From the NCBI GenBank assembly GCA_000965745.1, contig CP009479.1:568457-632456 (forward strand): a DNA stretch of 64,000 nt, in the 5' to 3' direction. Origin of the DNA: an uncultured archaeon. Lineage in GTDB: Archaea > Thermoplasmatota > Thermoplasmata > Thermoplasmatales > Thermoplasmataceae. How positions within the stretch are numbered: the stretch's first letter is position 1; every line of letters starts with the position of its first letter. The notes under the pieces were generated by a model. That model saw nothing but the letters and a program-made list of their open reading frames with translations. It had not been told where the DNA came from and searched no databases. Made by a program: the position numbers and the translations under genes. Below, in pieces: positions 56,492 to 64,000 of the stretch.

Positions 56492-57227
56492 AGAAGGTGG
56501 AGAGACCACTTTGGCCCGGGATTCATTCGAAGAGCTCAGGTACATTTTCGACTGGAGCTCCGCTAACAGAAATTATAGGCCAGGTGATATCGTTCTCATA
56601 GGCGGATGGGCAGTCCACTCATTTAATCCTTGGAAATATTCACTCGATATCGATTTGATCGCAACTGGTCGTTTCAAGGATTCATTAAAAAGACATCTAT
56701 ACTCGACCCGGGATTACAGTAGAGAAAGGGATTCTGCAGGAAATACCTTGTTTCTAAAAAGTATAGACTCTGGAGATATTTATCTTGACTTTCTACCGAA
56801 AAAAGATCAATTCCACGGAACGGGCAAATTTCTCAATTTGATGAAAATAGAATACGAGACTGTTCCCAAAAATATTTCCCATTCCATTGAGCCTGAGTTC
56901 CAAGTCATAGTCCCAGAGATCTCAATGCTCCTCTTGCTAAAGTTAAAAGCGGCATGGGACAGATACTATGATTTATCGCTTGAAACTGCTCTGGACAAGG
57001 ATCATTTGAACGAGAAGTTTACCAAGGATTGTGGCGACATCATTGCTTTACTTCAGAGTGATGCATTTCAGTTCGCCAGATTTGATTGGCTGTCTTCAAT
57101 CATATCCAGATTTGATTTCTTGCGGACTTTCCTGGGGCAGGGAATTATAGCGGATAATTCGGCTTTTGACCGTATTTCTCATAAGGAAGGCAAAGCGCTA
57201 ATCAAAAGGTTATTGTCTCTTATTTGA
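56481..57227 (+). CDS. AbiEii-like nucleotidyltransferase toxin
   Basis: A 248-aa protein with the nucleotidyltransferase signature LIGGWAVHSFNPWKYSLDIDLI (GG then DxD), and the AbiEii/MNT-type downstream strand DIYLDFLPKK with a third acidic residue. The C-terminal half is helical. Starts at GTG 56481. AbiEii-type toxins transfer nucleotides to tRNA or proteins; the target here is unknown. Pairing with the preceding gene makes a type IV-like toxin-antitoxin pair. Confidence 0.8.
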   Translation: MVNEEGGETTLARDSFEELRYIFDWSSANRNYRPGDIVLIGGWAVHSFNPWKYSLDIDLIATGRFKDSLKRHLYSTRDYSRERDSAGNTLFLKSIDSGDIYLDFLPKKDQFHGTGKFLNLMKIEYETVPKNISHSIEPEFQVIVPEISMLLLLKLKAAWDRYYDLSLETALDKDHLNEKFTKDCGDIIALLQSDAFQFARFDWLSSIISRFDFLRTFLGQGIIADNSAFDRISHKEGKALIKRLLSLI

Positions 57228-57275
57228 TGAAACTCTAAATGGAATGGTTGCAAGAGTTATCATAGAGACCTAAAA

Positions 57276-57314
57276 GTATTCGCTTAAAACATTAAACAAA
57301 TCCCGACCGGTCCA
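57276..57314 (+). repeat. attR-like repeat B (39 bp)
   Basis: Differs from repeat A by two bases (a for t at positions 16 and 21 of the 39) and contains the same tRNA-Ala end in its last 18 bases (caaatcccgaccggtcca). It is followed by ttt as in the tRNA flank. It forms the right border of cassette 2. Confidence 0.87.
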
Positions 57315-57364
57315 TTTCATGTGCATAATTAGTATGCTTGTGATAAATAGGATTATCATGGAGG

Positions 57365-57548
57365 TTAAGGGTCTTCAGTTTCCTTGTTTGTTTCATTTTG
57401 TCCAGCCTTTCTAACAGAATTGCGCGTCTCCCTGGTCCACAGGTAAACAAGTACGAACACAGTTATTGAGGGCACTATTAAGCCAATAATCCCTGTTTAA
57501 TTGATCATAATTCAGGTCGAATTCATGCCCGCATTTTTGGCACTTCAA
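57365..57548 (-). pseudogene. Frameshifted zinc-ribbon and single-span membrane protein
   Basis: From TTG 57546-57548 (preceded by taggag) the frame reads MKCQKCGHEFDLNYDQ, then leaves the family-like path. A second frame resumes GIIGLIVPSITVFVLVYL and WTRETRNSVRKAGQ to TAA 57365. Joined across a frameshift they give a protein of roughly 60 residues with a zinc ribbon and one transmembrane helix. Either the gene is broken or the reading needs recoding. Confidence 0.6.
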
Positions 57549-57804
57549 ATGATGCTCCTAGCCCATGCTAATTCCTCTGGTGGATCATATGAAATAAGAA
57601 TATATATCTCAACAGAAGATCCATAGGCTCCCTACACCATTTTAAGATTATTCTCCTTTCTATGGGGTACTGACCTCTTCAAGGTACCATCGGGTTTATG
57701 CCATGGAAATAGACCGTTATCTTGAGGATTCAGCAATTTTGGAGTGGGGTGAGCATAAGCTTCTATATAAAAAAACTTTATACTATCGTTTACCATAGAT
57801 AACT
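57549..57804. other. Gap before the RelBE-like pair
   Basis: No gene is supported. Near the right end actttatact at 57775-57784 is a TATA-like element 20-30 bases before the antitoxin GTG, with ctat...atag arms (57784-57799) close to the start that may be an operator. Confidence 0.35.
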
Positions 57805-58026
57805 GTGACAATTACAACAATACAGATAAAGGAAGAGACCAAGAAGACATTGCAGTCCATGAAATTACATCCAAGAGAGACTTACGAGGAAGTGATAGAA
57901 AGGATGCTGGAGGACCTTCGCGAACTTAATGAAGAAACCATAGCAGATATCGAGGAAGCTAGAAAGGAAATTGAATCCGGTAAATTCGTCACGCATGAGC
58001 AATTGAAAAAGGACCTTGGCCTCTGA
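57805..58026 (+). CDS. Antitoxin of RelB/ribbon-helix-helix type, 73 aa
   Basis: Reads MTITTIQIKEETKKTLQSMK, an N-terminal DNA-binding ribbon-helix-helix-like motif, then EEVIERMLEDLREL and the toxin-wrapping helix IEEARKEIESGKFVTHEQL. GTG start at 57805; its stop codon overlaps the toxin ATG by one base. Typical of archaeal antitoxins next to RelE. Confidence 0.85.
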   Translation: MTITTIQIKEETKKTLQSMKLHPRETYEEVIERMLEDLRELNEETIADIEEARKEIESGKFVTHEQLKKDLGL

Positions 58027-58280
58027 TGGAATACGAAATAATCTGGTCAATCAAGGCAGCAGGTCAGATGAGAAGTCTTGATAGGTCCGTTGCCAAAAGA
58101 ATTCATGAAAAAGTGGACCAGCTTTATCAAAACCCGGAAAGATTTGTTGAGAAACTCGTCAGGTATCCTTATTACAGGCTTAGGGTGGGAGATTATCGTG
58201 TGATTCTTGACATCAAACATGAATCTGTTAGAATATTGATCCTAAAGGTAGGACCCAGAAGTAAAATATACGAGCGATAG
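58026..58280 (+). CDS. RelE/ParE-family toxin, 84 aa
   Basis: Reads MEYEIIWSIKAAGQMRSLDR, then YPYYRLRVGDYRVILDI and the strand ILILKVGPRSKIYER, the standard RelE fold order. Archaeal RelE cleaves mRNA at the ribosome; activity here is inferred from the family. It is coupled to the antitoxin gene. Confidence 0.92.
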   Translation: MEYEIIWSIKAAGQMRSLDRSVAKRIHEKVDQLYQNPERFVEKLVRYPYYRLRVGDYRVILDIKHESVRILILKVGPRSKIYER

Positions 58281-58293
58281 TAGAATCAGAATG

Positions 58294-58332
58294 GTATTCC
58301 CTTAAAACATTAATCAAATCCTGACCGGTCCA
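58294..58332 (+). repeat. attR-like repeat C (39 bp)
   Basis: Shares the element-side 20 bases with A and B (gtattcccttaaaacattaa, one or two changes) and ends in tcaaatcctgaccggtcca, with one change from the tRNA. It forms the right border of cassette 3. Confidence 0.85.
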
Positions 58333-58433
58333 TAATCCTATGAGCCCGAGTCTCAAGCATATGTTGACATAAATCCACAGATTAAGTTGAAAAGATTTAA
58401 AATATCCTCTTTTTCTAATCCCACTAGAGTTGG

Positions 58434-58904
58434 ATGGACCATCTGAATAAGATTATAGAGGAAGCTTGGAATCAACGGGACACCCCTGAAGTGTTTCTAA
58501 AGAAATTCCAGGAAGTATTCGAAGATTACAGCGAAAATGCTGTGTACTTGTTCGAATATGCAAGTGCTTTGGATTTCCTGGGGAAGGAGACTGAGGCAAT
58601 TCCTCTATATCAAAGGGCCATAAAGATAGGGCTTTCAGGAAAAATGAAAACTCAGGCTGAAATACAGTTGGGAAGTTCACTCAGTGTCACGGGCGAAAAT
58701 GAAAGTGCCATATCTATCCTGAGCAGAGTACAGAAGGAAACGGGGGATCCTGCCGCCCTGTCATTCCTGTGCATTGCTCTGATCAGATCTGGAGAAACTA
58801 AGAAGTCGCTCAAGACTGCTCTCAATTTTATTCTGTCAAGCAATCAGGGTCTATTGCCTGAATATGAGAGACCCCTTTCACAGTACCTTGATGAAATCGG
58901 TTGA
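58434..58904 (+). CDS. TPR-repeat protein, 156 aa
   Basis: Tetratricopeptide-type helices cover most of the chain, for example NAVYLFEYASALDFLGKETE, AIPLYQRAIKIG and ALSFLCIALIRSGETKKSL. ATG 58434 lies about 30 bases after a TATA-like gatttaaaatat, which implies a leaderless mRNA. A scaffold role is likely; partner unknown. Confidence 0.8.
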   Translation: MDHLNKIIEEAWNQRDTPEVFLKKFQEVFEDYSENAVYLFEYASALDFLGKETEAIPLYQRAIKIGLSGKMKTQAEIQLGSSLSVTGENESAISILSRVQKETGDPAALSFLCIALIRSGETKKSLKTALNFILSSNQGLLPEYERPLSQYLDEIG

Positions 58905-58991
58905 TTTCTGATTCCGTCCGCCCATTCTGGCATATTGTAGCCATTCATTTAGAGAAGTGCCAACAAATGACTTGTAAGACCGACGCAAAAA

Positions 58992-59894
58992 TCATCCTCT
59001 ACCCTTTACTTCGCGATAAAGGTTTATGGATGCCGGGCTTGTTTTCCACATTTTGTTCAAGCGTATTCCTGGAAGTTCTCCCTGTTTAATTCTCAGTGCC
59101 AGGTATTTCGACGAGTAATCTGTACCGGAGGCTTCTCTTGCCTCTTTCAGGGTCAATAGGTTATCCTCTTCGGAACCCACCTTGTCGAGAACAAAGACAA
59201 GTGATCTTGCCATATTTGTTTCCAGAAACTCTGTTAATTTGCTCACACCTTTACCATGAGCAGCCTCAAGCGCATCCAGATAAGAACCTCTGTCGTTAGG
59301 GAGAATGTGAATCAACGGCCAGTTGTGATTGAGGAAGTGTATATTCAGCAGCAGTCTTCCGACTCTTCCATTTCCATCTGAAAAGGGATGGATTGACTCG
59401 AAACCGATGTGCATCTCTGCAGCCTGTGCGAAGATATCTTCACGCCCCATATCCATTGCCGCATAGTGCTTTTCCCATTCCCGAAGCAGTGAAATGAGCT
59501 TTTCAACTCTTGGGGGTGAATATCTTGAACCTGATATTCTGACATTGACTTTCCTCCACTGACCTGCGTCAATAAGTATCCCATAAAAAATATGTCGGTG
59601 CAAATCCAATGCACTTTTCATGCTAACTTCACATATTCTTCCACTTACAATTTCTGCCAAAGCGGATCGATGCTGGATAGTTTCAAGCAGATCTCTCACT
59701 GGGCGATCAGGAATAGTCATTCCACTTTCAATTACTCTGGTCACTTCATCCAGGGTTAGAGTGTTACCCTCTATGGCATTAGTTCCCCAGGTATTGAGTA
59801 TGAACGATTCTTGAAGGGTCTTCTCTGGCATATTGCGTAATGAGCCTCGATCCAACATCCTTTCCCTGAGTCTATTTAGTATGTGTCTATCCAT
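58992..59894 (-). CDS. Fic-family AMPylation protein
   Basis: Contains HPFSDGNGRVGRLL, the Fic catalytic motif, which transfers AMP from ATP to a protein target. The N-terminal TNAIEGN segment matches the (S/T)xxxE(G/N) inhibitory helix of class II Fic proteins, so the enzyme is probably autoinhibited. A C-terminal helix-turn-helix-like part (LTLKEAREASGTDY) follows. I start at ATG 59892-59894 (MDRHILNRL); an upstream ATG at 59945 adds 17 hydrophobic residues. Confidence 0.93.
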   Translation of the reverse strand: MDRHILNRLRERMLDRGSLRNMPEKTLQESFILNTWGTNAIEGNTLTLDEVTRVIESGMTIPDRPVRDLLETIQHRSALAEIVSGRICEVSMKSALDLHRHIFYGILIDAGQWRKVNVRISGSRYSPPRVEKLISLLREWEKHYAAMDMGREDIFAQAAEMHIGFESIHPFSDGNGRVGRLLLNIHFLNHNWPLIHILPNDRGSYLDALEAAHGKGVSKLTEFLETNMARSLVFVLDKVGSEEDNLLTLKEAREASGTDYSSKYLALRIKQGELPGIRLNKMWKTSPASINLYREVKGRG

Positions 59895-59990
59895 TATCGA
59901 TACAAATATACATATTAGATATTTAAACATATATGGAAAACTCAAATAATCTTATTAACTCCATATTAACCATCATTTTAACAAAATTGA

Positions 59991-60250
59991 GCGGGAAATC
60001 CCCTTCCGAAAGGGAGGGAATGAAAGTGAACCTATCTGTATCACAAACAGATGTAATTCCTGTTCGCTGGCAGACAGAAGTGAAAGTGGTCGGATAGCAT
60101 ATTGCTCCATGCATGCCTGCGTCCGTAAAGTCAGGTGGCTGAGCATGGAGGACATAGTACCTTCGGGCCAAGGGGAATTCAAGCCTGTGGAGATTCCGCC
60201 AGCAACCTTTGAAGCAGGAAGCTCCCTGTGAAAGCTGGGAGAGGAGGTCA
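59991..60250 (+). mobile_element. Remnant of an IS200/IS605-like element (tnpB 3' end)
   Basis: The stretch ends in a frame reading PVEIPPATFEAGSSL, resembling the C-terminal tail of TnpB, followed by gaagcaggaagctccc and gctgggagaggaggtcac, a hairpin-bearing right end typical of IS605 elements. An older hairpin cccttccgaaaggg lies at 60001-60014, perhaps from a second copy. No intact transposase or TnpB remains. The reverse strand has an open frame that carries no family signal. Confidence 0.42.
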
Positions 60251-60264
60251 CATAGTTTCAAAGC

Positions 60265-60771
60265 TCAATCCAATGAAATCCTTTCCATCTCGTTTCCATT
60301 TACTGTTAGAAGCCCCTTAACCTCACAGGCTTTCGACAGTGTGTTGGTAACATAGCAGTCGGAGGCAGAAACTGATGCCAATTCCCTGATTTTCTCGACG
60401 TTTTCAGGCGATCTGATGTCAACGAAATATACTATCTCAGAGAAAGATCTTGGCCTGCTTACGCTGAATTTTCCCTCAACCCCTATGGTGAGGTGATCGA
60501 TTACCAGATCTTTGGAGCCCGCGTGTTCTCCGTAGTGTATCATCTGGCACATGGCAAGGCTTGATACAAAATAAGCGAGAGGACTGGGCCCATTTTCATC
60601 TGATACCCAGGAAAATTCCTGATTGCCAGGACTGGCTCTGGAAAATAGATTGTTACCCTTGCTCACTGTGACACTGACATTTGAAAAAACATCTCCTTTC
60701 TTATCAAATTTTGAGAATTTTTCCATCCTTTCCTTCATTCTCTGTTTGAAGTCTCCGTCAAACTGTACCAT
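60265..60771 (-). CDS. OsmC-family protein
   Basis: A 168-aa OsmC/Ohr-like fold. Marks are PSPLAYFVSSLAMCQMIHYG (first active Cys) and SVSASDCYVTNTLSKACEV (second Cys). Such proteins reduce organic hydroperoxides using thiols; the substrate is not predictable. It is transcribed in the same direction as the CARF-like regulator, 70 bases downstream of it, with its own palindrome and promoter region between them. Confidence 0.9.
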   Translation of the reverse strand: MVQFDGDFKQRMKERMEKFSKFDKKGDVFSNVSVTVSKGNNLFSRASPGNQEFSWVSDENGPSPLAYFVSSLAMCQMIHYGEHAGSKDLVIDHLTIGVEGKFSVSRPRSFSEIVYFVDIRSPENVEKIRELASVSASDCYVTNTLSKACEVKGLLTVNGNEMERISLD

Positions 60772-60807
60772 GCCACTGAAATTTGGATTGGTTCTTAATT
60801 CCTCACC

Positions 60808-60820
60808 GTCAACCGTTGAC
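60808..60820. promoter_or_regulatory. CAACCGTTG operator copy 1
   Basis: Palindrome gtcaaccgttgac, 37-49 bases upstream of the OsmC start. The 9-base core recurs upstream of the regulator (61599-61607) and of the zinc-finger membrane gene (61712-61720). Confidence 0.5.
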
Positions 60821-60840
60821 GCAAGCCGGCCTTTTTGGTC

Positions 60841-61560
60841 TCAAACAGTAACAATCCTGCCAAGGGCTGTTATCTCTACTTCCATTCTTCCCCTGGCCTT
60901 TCTGTTTACGGACACAAGCCCAAGATCGATGAGACCCTGAGAATCGTCAGTGCCATTCATGTGCCTGCTGATAAGGGATTTTTCAAGCCCCGTTAATTCC
61001 GAGAGCTGCTCAAGGCTATCCACCTTGCCTTTCATCCTTGACAGTGCACTTAATATAGAAAGCTTGGTCTCAGACAATATCTTCTGGTATCCCAGCTTCA
61101 TGATGGGCAGCATATGCACACCCGATTGATCCACCCAGAAAGCTCTTATGCCAAAAATAAAAGCAGAGGAAATGGCGGTGCACGACAGGAGTTTCCCTCC
61201 TTCGGTAACATTCATGAAAATGTCCTCATACTCCTGGCTATGCTCCTTATACACTGATTTTACGGCGTCGAGGACCTCATTGAGTTCCCCCGATTCTATC
61301 ATCACCTCATCAACCTGGGCCATAAGGGCTCCTGAGACCTGCTCCATAAAACCATTGAACGGAACGTCATTCACGGGGATGCTTTTCCCATGGACCCGTT
61401 CGTGAATTATTACAATCTTGTCCAGAGGAAGATGCCTTATTCCGGATCTTATCCCTGTATAAGACTGCCCGTCTGTATATATGGCGATCTGAAGGGTCTT
61501 TTTCTGTAAGCCGGCCTCATCTGCCATGGTTCTTAGGAAGCAATCAGTGTTTATAGACAT
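60841..61560 (-). CDS. CARF-like/winged-helix regulator
   Basis: A 239-aa protein. Residues 20-160 form an alpha/beta domain (LQIAIYTDGQSYTGI, DKIVIIHERV, DIFMNVTEGGKLLSCTAISS) similar to CARF or DUF6293-type ligand sensors, and residues 175-235 form a winged helix (LSILSALSRMKGKVDSLEQL, then LTGLEKSLISRHM). It likely senses a small molecule and regulates nearby genes through the CAACCGTTG motif. ATG 61560 or MADEAG at 61527 are both possible starts. Confidence 0.8.
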   Translation of the reverse strand: MSINTDCFLRTMADEAGLQKKTLQIAIYTDGQSYTGIRSGIRHLPLDKIVIIHERVHGKSIPVNDVPFNGFMEQVSGALMAQVDEVMIESGELNEVLDAVKSVYKEHSQEYEDIFMNVTEGGKLLSCTAISSAFIFGIRAFWVDQSGVHMLPIMKLGYQKILSETKLSILSALSRMKGKVDSLEQLSELTGLEKSLISRHMNGTDDSQGLIDLGLVSVNRKARGRMEVEITALGRIVTV

Positions 61561-61598
61561 GTGTTCGCATCAAGGGAGGTAATACTAACTTTCCCCAG

Positions 61599-61607
61599 CA
61601 ACCGTTG
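61599..61607. promoter_or_regulatory. CAACCGTTG operator copy 2
   Basis: caaccgttg lies 39-47 bases upstream of the regulator's start on the minus strand, suggesting autoregulation. Confidence 0.5.
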
Positions 61608-61711
61608 GTGGGTAATTTATTCTATCTTAGGTATGCATATCCAGCGTGTATTGACAAGAGAAGTCTTCCGGCTTAACACTTATTTTGAATCCCGTTACGA
61701 CTTCATATTAG

Positions 61712-61722
61712 CAACCGTTGAC
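61712..61722. promoter_or_regulatory. CAACCGTTG operator copy 3
   Basis: caaccgttgac lies nine bases before the TATA box ttatatata (61732-61740) of the zinc-finger membrane gene, in the place of an activator site or BRE-adjacent repressor site. Confidence 0.5.
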
Positions 61723-61731
61723 GGAATTGGC

Positions 61732-61740
61732 TTATATATA
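61732..61740 (+). promoter_or_regulatory. TATA box of the zinc-finger membrane gene
   Basis: ttatatata is 28-36 bases upstream of ATG 61768, so the mRNA is probably leaderless. Confidence 0.6.
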
Positions 61741-61767
61741 CTTCCAAAATCTGAAAATCAGATAAAA

Positions 61768-62364
61768 ATGACAGAAAACAGATGTGATGTGTGCGGTATG
61801 TCCTTTGGCTCGAAAGAGAGCCTGATGGAACATGCAAAAATGCACATGGGATCGGGAAATACAAGAACGGGACCAGGGAAGCTGACAACAAGGGGTGTAA
61901 TAACCTCATCCGTGGTTGGAGGAATTCTTGGTGGAATAGTAATGCTCATAGTCCTAATGGTTGGTGCAATGGGAATGGGGCTTTCGGCCACAACTTTTGC
62001 AATGGTTATGGGCATGGGCCTTGGCGCTTCAATGGGAGCGGCGACGGCTGTTGGAGTAGTCAGCCATTTTGTTGTTGCAATAGTGGCAGGAGGCATATTT
62101 GGGGCAATCGTTTCATTTGTGAAACCTCTTGGCCTTAAAACAGCAGGTAGAGCACCTATTCTGGGTTTAGTGTTTGGCATAGTAATGTTCCTGGTGTTCT
62201 TCCTTCCAATGGCGATGGCGGTATTTGCACCTGTAATGATGCACCTGATGGATCCAAAGGCTGCAATGATGCTACCAGATGTACTGGTGACAGGATTCAT
62301 AGGTCACATCCTGTTCGGTCTCGTACTTGGAACAGTGGCATTTTACTTTGGAAGAAAATTTTAA
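61768..62364 (+). CDS. Zinc-finger plus multispan membrane protein, 198 aa
   Basis: An N-terminal C2H2-type finger (NRCDVCGMSFGSKESLMEHA and KMHMG) is followed by about four to five transmembrane helices rich in Gly, Met and Val (VVGGILGGIVMLIVLMVGAM, VVSHFVVAIVAGGIFGAIV). The ATG at 61768 is supported by the TATA spacing; a longer frame starting at 61561 would run through the promoter. Function unknown; the fused layout suggests a membrane-tethered protein interacting through the finger. Confidence 0.75.
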   Translation: MTENRCDVCGMSFGSKESLMEHAKMHMGSGNTRTGPGKLTTRGVITSSVVGGILGGIVMLIVLMVGAMGMGLSATTFAMVMGMGLGASMGAATAVGVVSHFVVAIVAGGIFGAIVSFVKPLGLKTAGRAPILGLVFGIVMFLVFFLPMAMAVFAPVMMHLMDPKAAMMLPDVLVTGFIGHILFGLVLGTVAFYFGRKF

Positions 62365-62416
62365 ATTATCAAACATAATTTTTTAATATTTAAAATAAAG
62401 ATCATGAGTGATTGAA

Positions 62417-63769
62417 ATGACAGCAAAATACGACTTAATAATCATAGGATCAGGATCAGCTTCCACTACCACAGCGTTCAGGGCACTGAAAGCAGGAAAG
62501 AAAATTGCAGTGATAGACCAGAAGCCAATCGGAGGAACATGCGCCCTCAGGGGATGTGATCCCAAAAAGGTCATGGTAGGTGTTACCGATTCCCTGGAGC
62601 ATGCAAAACGACTCCAGGGATACGGCATATCTGATTTTAAGGGAGAACTCAACTGGGACGAGCTCATGAAGTTCAAGAGCTCCTTTACCGAGCCAATGTC
62701 CAAGAAAATAGAGGAAAGCCTCGTTAAAAGTGGTATTGATGTGCACAGAGGGAGGGCGAAATTTATCAAGCCTGATACGCTCGAAGTTGAAGGAAAACCA
62801 CTGGAAGCCGAAAAATTCCTGATATCCTCAGGAGTGAAGGCAGCAACTCTCAATTTTCCTGGTTCAGAGTACCTGATAGATAATGAGGAGTTTCTGAACC
62901 TTCCCTCACTGCCGAAGAACCTGGTGTTCATCGGCGGGGGATACATTTCGGTTGAATTCGCCAGTATAGCAAGAAAAGCTGGCTCGGAGGCAACTATAAT
63001 ACAGCACTCAGACAGGATACTGGTCAACTTTGACAAAGAAGTTGCTGAAGTCCTTTCCAAGCAGTTGAAAGATTCGGGTATAAGGACTCTGACAAGCAGC
63101 TCAGTGAAGGAGATACAGAAGTCAGGGGGCAAATATGAAATACGCCTTGCAAAGGACGGAAAGGAGCATTCCATTACAGCAGATCTTGTTGTTCATGGTG
63201 CGGGCAGAGAATTTGATTCAGACATGGGACTTGAAGTTGGACAGGTGAAATGGTCCAGAAAAGGAGTGGCAGTAAATGAATATCTCCAGAGTGTGTCGAA
63301 TCCCAGGGTTTATGCTGCTGGAGATTCCGCTGATACTTCAGGACCAAAGCTGACACCGATTGCGGTTATGGAAGGCAACATAGCAGCAGAGAACATCATA
63401 AACGGAAATTCCGTGAAGGCAAATTACACAGGGATTCCTACGTCCGTCTTCTCCTCTCCGCCATTGGCAATGGTTGGAATCACTGAGGAGGGTGCTTCCA
63501 GGAAAGGTATTAAGACAACTGTGAAAAAAGGGGAGATGACATCCTGGTATAATTCCAGGAGGAGAATGGTGCCAAGTTCATTCTATAAGATCATCATGAA
63601 TGAGGACTCCAGCAAAATTCTGGGTGCACACATTCTTGGTGAAAATTCAGAGGAAACCATTAATATCTTCGCCCTTGCAATAAGGCTTGGCATCGATGTG
63701 AAAACACTACTCTCGATACCTTACACCTATCCATCGGATACGAACGACATTAGATACATGATCGGGTAA
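62417..63769 (+). CDS. Pyridine-nucleotide disulfide oxidoreductase (dihydrolipoamide/mercuric reductase-like)
   Basis: A 450-aa flavoprotein. FAD motif IIIGSGSASTTTAFRA, redox Cys pair GGTCALRGCDPKK (CxxxxC), NAD motif FIGGGYISVEFASIA, and VYAAGDSADTSGP. The C-terminal dimerisation domain is present, but the catalytic His-Glu dyad normally found near the end is replaced by SIPYTYPSDTNDIRY. The usual substrate (lipoamide, glutathione, Hg2+) is thus uncertain. Start ATG 62417; an in-frame GTG at 62408 exists. A decayed paralogue lies at 5164. Confidence 0.9.
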   Translation: MTAKYDLIIIGSGSASTTTAFRALKAGKKIAVIDQKPIGGTCALRGCDPKKVMVGVTDSLEHAKRLQGYGISDFKGELNWDELMKFKSSFTEPMSKKIEESLVKSGIDVHRGRAKFIKPDTLEVEGKPLEAEKFLISSGVKAATLNFPGSEYLIDNEEFLNLPSLPKNLVFIGGGYISVEFASIARKAGSEATIIQHSDRILVNFDKEVAEVLSKQLKDSGIRTLTSSSVKEIQKSGGKYEIRLAKDGKEHSITADLVVHGAGREFDSDMGLEVGQVKWSRKGVAVNEYLQSVSNPRVYAAGDSADTSGPKLTPIAVMEGNIAAENIINGNSVKANYTGIPTSVFSSPPLAMVGITEEGASRKGIKTTVKKGEMTSWYNSRRRMVPSSFYKIIMNEDSSKILGAHILGENSEETINIFALAIRLGIDVKTLLSIPYTYPSDTNDIRYMIG

Positions 63770-63835
63770 ATCCTGCATTCAATATCTATTGCCGAACAAC
63801 TCCATTTTTTTTGTATTGCGGGAAGTGTGTATTTG

Positions 63836-63869
63836 ATAATAGATTAAAATTTTGATCAAATCCCGACCG
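63836..63869 (+). repeat. Truncated att-like repeat D
   Basis: tcaaatcccgaccg (63856-63869) equals the first 14 of the 19 tRNA-end bases; the upstream bases ttaaaattttga resemble the element side of repeats A-C. The last five tRNA bases are missing. It may be a degenerate att site and the right boundary of the array. Confidence 0.5.
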
Positions 63870-64000
63870 CCTCTGAATGTGATTTATTGCAAAGGGGGAA
63901 AACCGTACGGGTGTGATTCTCCGTCAGGATATGAAGCGCCCAGTTTTCTGAAAGCGCCCATTCTGGCTGGAAGTCTGCCCGGATGGCCAAACTGGCACCA

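What the first reader, a model, noticed from the sequence alone, without database searches (positions are those of the whole stretch)
60808..61722. CAACCGTTG palindrome upstream of three transcription units
The 9-base core occurs at 60808-60820 (extended to gtcaaccgttgac), 61599-61607 and 61712-61722, at 37-55 bases from the starts of the OsmC-like gene, the CARF-like regulator and the zinc-finger membrane gene. Equal placement upstream of expected TATA positions points to a shared regulator, most simply the CARF-like protein itself.
Basis: partly seen in the sequence, partly recalled or inferred. Interest (0 to 1): 0.6.

Follow-up and report, generated by a model that had tools for sequence, protein, structure and literature searches.

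The report
Conserved operator of a CARF-regulated redox cassette
Three copies of a short mirror-image DNA sequence in an acid-loving archaeon are very likely the switches through which a CRISPR-type sensor protein, here far from any CRISPR genes, controls its own gene and a small set of neighbouring thiol/peroxide- and metal-stress genes.

Summary
CAACCGTTG occurs at 60810-60818, 61599-61607 and 61712-61720. Only 9 further copies exist in the 2.23-Mb genome, mostly inside ORFs. In 13 genomes of the order carrying the gene set or its remnants, all 30 first-gene promoters examined hold CAAC-N-GTTG or a close variant. It is centred 42-44 nt from the ATG (carf, osmC, hpp) or 50-52 nt (zinc-finger membrane gene). 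The TATA box starts at about +16 in every case, and a G at +8, outside the palindrome, is invariant. The core is 90-100% identical where flanking DNA is about 30% identical. A promoter model finds only these three sites in this genome. The regulator is a CARF-winged-helix protein, structurally closest to Csa3 but below every curated Csa3/HFX_2341 cut-off. No Cas10 was detected in its nine intact carriers, so it is probably not a type III CRISPR relay. Best reading: an autoregulated local regulon in which the CARF protein binds just upstream of BRE/TATA, most likely as an activator of osmC, a C2H2/DUF6789 membrane protein and probably a MerA/glutathione-reductase-like flavoenzyme. Binding, direction and ligand are inferred; one genome (G014) keeps the motif but no detectable regulator.

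The parts
60265..60771 (-). OsmC-like gene (168 aa)
   Evidence: Pfam OsmC E 3.9e-14; NCBIfam OsmC_like_Se E 2.9e-20 below cut-off; two invariant Cys, C75 and C139, in 6 orthologues
60791..60798 (-). TATA-like element of osmC (TTAAGAAC), +16 from motif centre
   Evidence: column conservation
60808..60820 (.). operator 1: GTCAACCGTTGAC (core 60810-60818), centre 43 nt before the osmC ATG
   Evidence: conserved before osmC in 8 genomes
60841..61560 (-). CARF + winged-helix regulator (239 aa), candidate binder
   Evidence: AlphaFold model pLDDT 82; Foldseek best hit Csa3 6wxq E 2e-8; HFX_2341_N 25.9 bits and Csa3_N 16.4 bits, both below cut-off
61580..61588 (-). weak TATA-like element of the regulator gene (TTAGTATTA), +15 from motif centre
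61599..61607 (.). operator 2: CAACCGTTG, centre 43 nt before the regulator ATG
61712..61720 (.). operator 3: CAACCGTTG, centre 52 nt before the zinc-finger membrane gene ATG
61732..61739 (+). consensus TATA box (TTATATAT) of the zinc-finger membrane gene, +16 from motif centre
61768..62364 (+). C2H2 zinc finger + DUF6789-like membrane protein (198 aa)
   Evidence: zf-C2H2 E 1e-3 and DUF6789 E 6e-4, sub-threshold; C6, C9, H22, H26 invariant in 6 orthologues
62417..63769 (+). FAD disulfide reductase, MerA/glutathione-reductase-like, possibly co-expressed with the gene before it
   Evidence: Pyr_redox_2 E 3.7e-59; MerA and glutathione reductase models E about 1e-95, below cut-offs; starts 52 nt after the zfm stop, with its own AT-rich upstream region and no palindrome

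Best explanation
The palindrome (gene-oriented consensus TCAAC-N-GTTGAC-N-G-N-AAA, then TATA at +16) is the operator of a small autoregulated regulon. A dimer of the CARF-winged-helix protein encoded at 60841-61560 binds it, one recognition helix per half-site, directly upstream of BRE/TATA. It most likely activates (helps TBP/TFB onto) the promoters of its own gene, osmC and the zinc-finger membrane gene, with the disulfide reductase possibly expressed downstream of the latter. The CARF domain senses a cytosolic signal. With no Cas10 found and a cassette of thiol/peroxide and metal-type genes, the signal is more likely a redox, thiol or nucleotide-type metabolite than CRISPR cyclic oligoadenylate. 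Shown: the sites, their rarity, conservation, fixed spacing and the predicted fold of the regulator. Inferred: binder identity (about 0.8), activation rather than repression (about 0.6), redox/metal signal (about 0.55).
For: All 30 first-gene promoters of carf, osmC, zfm and hpp in 13 genomes carry the site, nearly all as exact CAACNGTTG and the rest as close variants. The only two cases without it (osmC of G056 and G064) sit directly behind zfm in an apparent operon. Motif to TATA is about +16 whether the ATG is 43 or 52 nt away, so the site is anchored to the promoter, not to the coding start. G at +8 is invariant 30/30 although the sites were not picked on it. Core 0.90-1.00 identical against 0.27-0.32 in flanking -50..-7; the motif block is the most conserved 9-mer upstream of each gene. 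A 38-position promoter model gives exactly the three cassette sites in G000, and mainly cassette sites in G010, G109, G056 and G064. The wHTH protein is the only predicted DNA-binding regulator in the cassette; R199 in its predicted recognition helix is present in 9/9 regulators with the palindrome and is Tyr in 9/9 relatives without it. No Cas10 palm domain in the 9 intact carriers. The archaeal regulators CopR and OxsR use (semi)palindromes at this very position upstream of BRE (PMC7830388; PMC9426492).
Against: No binding or expression data. G014 (96% complete) has osmC with the site but no CARF gene at E <= 10; G005 and G107 keep the site with a broken CARF gene, which could mean another binder or recent loss. 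Binder and motif co-occurrence is confounded by common descent, as is R199. Position upstream of BRE favours activation, but CopR is reported to repress its own promoter. The stress assignment rests on gene families only. PF22335 may miss divergent Cas10, and several carriers are drafts.
Confidence: 0.75

Rival explanations
1. The palindrome is the binding site of a different, chromosomally encoded transcription factor, and the CARF gene is just another member of its regulon.
For: G014 has the site without a detectable CARF gene, and G005/G107 keep the site beside a broken CARF gene.
Against: A general factor would be expected to have sites elsewhere; the promoter model and the full census of 39 CAACNGTTG show no other clear promoter in G000 (the first look scored 150 of 648 candidates). 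Genomes of the order without the cassette show only low, chance-like numbers of the palindrome.
Confidence: 0.17
2. The site works as a repressor operator: the CARF protein blocks TFB/TBP loading until a ligand releases it.
For: Negative autoregulation is common (general knowledge); HFX_2341, the nearest described relative type, lowers cas transcripts (PMC11434293); the site abuts BRE. zfm has a consensus TATA that may need no activator.
Against: The site is upstream of, not overlapping, TATA or the expected start site; the osmC and carf TATA elements are weak, as expected for activator-dependent promoters.
Confidence: 0.35
3. The regulator is a true Csa3-type CRISPR factor that answers cyclic oligoadenylate and turns on protective genes during infection.
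For: Best structural match is Csa3; the CARF loop NxTxGxK is present; the broken copy in G005 lies beside a csx1 gene; G000 has cas1.
Against: No Cas10 palm domain in the 9 genomes with an intact regulator; no Csa3-specific GF(N/D)xxF motif (PMC8844856 definition; sequence); no cas genes seen next to it; cas1 copies lie more than 600 kb away.
Confidence: 0.1
4. Chance repeat, or similarity left from recent duplication of the promoter segments.
For: The core is short (9 bp).
Against: Flanks of the three sites are unrelated, and flanks are about 30% identical between orthologues while the core is kept; Poisson P 8e-9.
Confidence: 0.01

Closest known systems
Csa3 (CRISPR-associated CARF-wHTH transcription factor; PDB 2wte, 6wxq, 6w11)
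   Same: Two-domain CARF + winged helix, best Foldseek hits E 2e-8; reported to act through a pseudopalindrome in promoters (PMC8844856).
   Different: Only about 15% identical; TIGR01884 16.9 bits against cut-off 60.2 and Csa3_N 16.4 against 27; lacks the Csa3 cA4 motif 1; sits with a thiol/metal-type cassette, not cas genes; no Cas10 found in intact carriers.
HFX_2341-type haloarchaeal regulators (PF19810)
   Same: Weak sequence match E 1.4e-5 over the N-terminal domain; also not linked to CRISPR loci (PMC11434293).
   Different: Below the curated cut-off (25.9 against 30); no operator was found described there and its reported effect is on cas transcripts.
MM_0565 of Methanosarcina mazei (CARF-wHTH)
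   Same: Binds its own promoter including BRE/TATA, autoregulation, targets outside the adjacent cas operon (PMC7465815).
   Different: No short palindromic operator was defined in the passages read; the gene is linked to a type I-B locus.
CopR (Pyrococcus) and OxsR (Haloferax) promoter logic
   Same: (Semi)palindrome directly upstream of BRE/TATA at metal- or oxidant-response promoters (PMC7830388, PMC9426492).
   Different: Unrelated sensor domains, other operator sequences, larger regulons.

Membership tests
CARF-wHTH transcription regulators | Rossmann-like CARF domain followed by a winged helix | tested here: met
   AlphaFold model pLDDT 82 with alternating strands and helices 22-150, helices 164-175, 183-190, 194-202 and wing strands 216-230; top PDB hits Csa3 and other CARF proteins
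CARF-wHTH transcription regulators | CARF ligand-loop motif NxTxGxK | tested here: met
   N117, T119, G121, K123 invariant in 9 orthologues
Csa3 | Score above the curated Csa3 models | tested here: not met
   TIGR01884 16.9/60.2 bits; PF22662 16.4/27 bits
Csa3 | Linked to cas genes or to a cOA-making Cas10 | tested here: not met
   No cas genes seen at the locus; no PF22335 match in the 9 intact carriers; sensitivity of the single model is a limit
Csa3 | cA4 binding motif 1 GF(N/D)xxF | tested here: not met
   Equivalent stretch reads AIYTDGQSYTG against the PMC8844856 definition
HFX_2341 family (PF19810) | Score above gathering cut-off | tested here: not met
   25.9 against 30 bits
Archaeal promoter-proximal operator | Palindrome at fixed spacing upstream of BRE/TATA, conserved between species | tested here: met
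Archaeal promoter-proximal operator | Bound by the cognate regulator in vitro and needed in vivo | not testable with these tools
   needs EMSA, footprint, mutants

The most novel reading that the evidence does not exclude
A CARF transcription factor recruited away from CRISPR as a thiol/electrophile (or metal) sensor of a mobile detoxification cassette, sensing through the clade-specific Cys next to the CARF ligand loop (C127, kept in 16 of 18 relatives) or through a non-CRISPR nucleotide ligand.
Probability: 0.35. Interest if true: 0.75.

Novelty: new variant of a known kind. Interest (0 to 1): 0.55.

Why it matters
CARF domains are known mainly as receptors of CRISPR cyclic oligoadenylates. 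Here is a CARF regulator with a precisely defined operator, conserved over 30 promoters, and a compact non-CRISPR target set. That makes the question of what CARF proteins sense outside type III CRISPR directly testable, and gives Thermoplasmatales a candidate stress regulator with a ready reporter element.

Tried and rejected
Global regulon: palindrome counts in 117 genomes of the order are not clearly enriched in carriers beyond the cassette sites; the census of 39 own-genome sites gave no other convincing promoter. The thiolase site (L154, centre 57 nt from ATG) is a weak candidate only. Sequence search of PDB with the regulator or its profile gave nothing significant; only fold comparison worked. 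The first structure model (9 sequences) was poor, pLDDT 66.7; the 18-sequence alignment raised it to 82. Looked for the same palindrome at the distant family f14 loci (L112-L114): absent; a different palindrome, CTCCATGTAaaTACATGGAG, stands before osmC and the reductase there, but it overlaps duplicated zinc-finger gene tails, so it is not counted as evidence. The L007 and L009 copies of the 9-mer lie in a dispersed repeat. No paper holding CARF, OsmC and Thermoplasma together was found. No Rfam match at 57000-64000.

Full report
Observation. The 9-mer CAACCGTTG is present exactly at 60810-60818, 61599-61607 and 61712-61720, the first inside the 13-bp palindrome GTCAACCGTTGAC. The window lies in a 2,226,687-bp single-contig genome; close relatives are deposited as Thermoplasmata MAGs. 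The genome holds 12 CAACCGTTG and 39 CAACNGTTG, with no global excess over the reversed pattern. With the cluster left out, three in 915 bp has P 8e-9, about 2e-5 over all windows of that size. Of the other 36 free-centre sites about 31 lie in ORFs, a few of those ORFs being short and uncertain.

Genes. On the minus strand lie osmC (60265-60771) and a CARF-wHTH regulator (60841-61560); on the plus strand a C2H2 + DUF6789-like membrane protein (61768-62364, 'zfm') and an FAD disulfide reductase (62417-63769) that scores about equally on MerA and glutathione-reductase models, below both cut-offs. Operator 1 lies in the 69-bp carf-osmC gap; operators 2 and 3 in the 207-bp divergent carf/zfm gap.

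Footprint. Orthologous loci were fetched from relatives found with the regulator, osmC and zfm. Every first-gene promoter examined, 30 in 13 genomes, has the palindrome: nearly all exact CAACNGTTG, the rest close variants such as CAACCCTTG, CAACTGTTA, CAACCATTG. Centre-to-ATG is 42-44 for osmC, 43-44 for carf, 43 for the HPP-like gene, 52 (50 in family f3) for zfm; one broken carf (G005) has no defined start. The TATA element starts at about +16 in all, so the palindrome is tied to the promoter and not to the ATG. G at +8 is invariant. Because the sites were picked by the core, core conservation alone would be circular; the fixed position, the G at +8 and the TATA register are not. Pairwise identity between orthologous promoters is 0.27-0.32 in the upstream flank and 0.90-1.00 in the core without its centre base, and the motif is the best-conserved block upstream of each gene. 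A sequence-only promoter model finds exactly the three cassette sites in G000 at E <= 1 and mainly cassette sites in the other carriers (the first look scored 150 of 648 candidates, and the model was trained on these sites, so only the absence of others is informative).

Regulon extent. In family f3 the same site also precedes an HPP-like membrane gene and a tiny C2H2 protein (MPEEFRCNACNMNFKTKAELEEHGKKYHMH, G056; near-identical in G064), and in G014 a similar tiny C2H2 gene divergent from osmC. MerP-like (HMA) and MerA-like genes neighbour the cassette in G085 and G064, and a MerA-like gene in G056. The cassette is patchy: regulator matches in 12 of 117 genomes of the order, in 8 of 33 genera, two of them broken and one a contig-end fragment, with a TnpB-like gene inserted in G019 (named by eye), which points to mobility or frequent loss.

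The regulator. AlphaFold with 18 relatives gives pLDDT 82; the nearest solved structures are Csa3 and other CARF proteins. Curated Csa3 and HFX_2341 models score below cut-off. Cas10 was not detected in any of the 9 intact carriers, although cas1 is present in several, including G000 far from this locus. The Csa3-specific cA4 motif is missing. C127, next to the ligand loop, is kept in 16 of 18 relatives, and R199 of the predicted recognition helix separates the 9 regulators with the palindrome (Arg) from 9 relatives without it (Tyr); both are correlations confounded by descent.

Mechanism. The most likely scheme is a dimeric CARF-wHTH activator seated directly upstream of BRE, as for CopR and OxsR, autoregulating and switching on OsmC, zfm and perhaps the reductase when its CARF domain meets a signal. 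Repression from the same site cannot be excluded. Exceptions are G014 (site, no detectable regulator) and G005/G107 (site, broken regulator).

Verdict. Real operator (0.97), CARF protein as binder (0.8), activator (0.6), redox/metal stress signal (0.55). Filed as a new variant of CARF-wHTH regulators, not as a Csa3 or HFX_2341 member.

Noticed in passing
window 60065-60251: Dispersed repeat about 180 nt long downstream of osmC; about 80% identical copies elsewhere in the genome (L007, L009) and between carf and osmC in G076 (L034 5319-5498). No Rfam match.
   Followed up: partly
window 57805-58280: Two small overlapping ORFs that look like a toxin-antitoxin pair (second resembles RelE/ParE, by eye).
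   Followed up: no
window 58992-59894: Fic/DOC domain protein (Pfam E 9e-20) beside the cassette.
   Followed up: no
L020 1-2392, L040 1793-4318: Broken relatives of the regulator with an intact palindrome, next to a gene that in L020 is csx1 (CARF-HEPN); a possible evolutionary bridge to CRISPR signalling.
   Followed up: partly
L038 6918-7010, L039 1-193, L074 4250-4380: Very short C2H2 zinc-finger protein genes (about 30-40 aa) that carry the same operator.
   Followed up: partly
L112-L114 (family f14): Same gene set with a distant CARF regulator (29-31% identical) but a different palindrome, CTCCATGTAaaTACATGGAG, before the TATA of osmC and the reductase.
   Followed up: partly
L154 1501-1562 (genome 294836): CAACTGTTG 57 nt before a thiolase-like gene with a T-rich TATA-like stretch; possible extra target in this genome only.
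   Followed up: no
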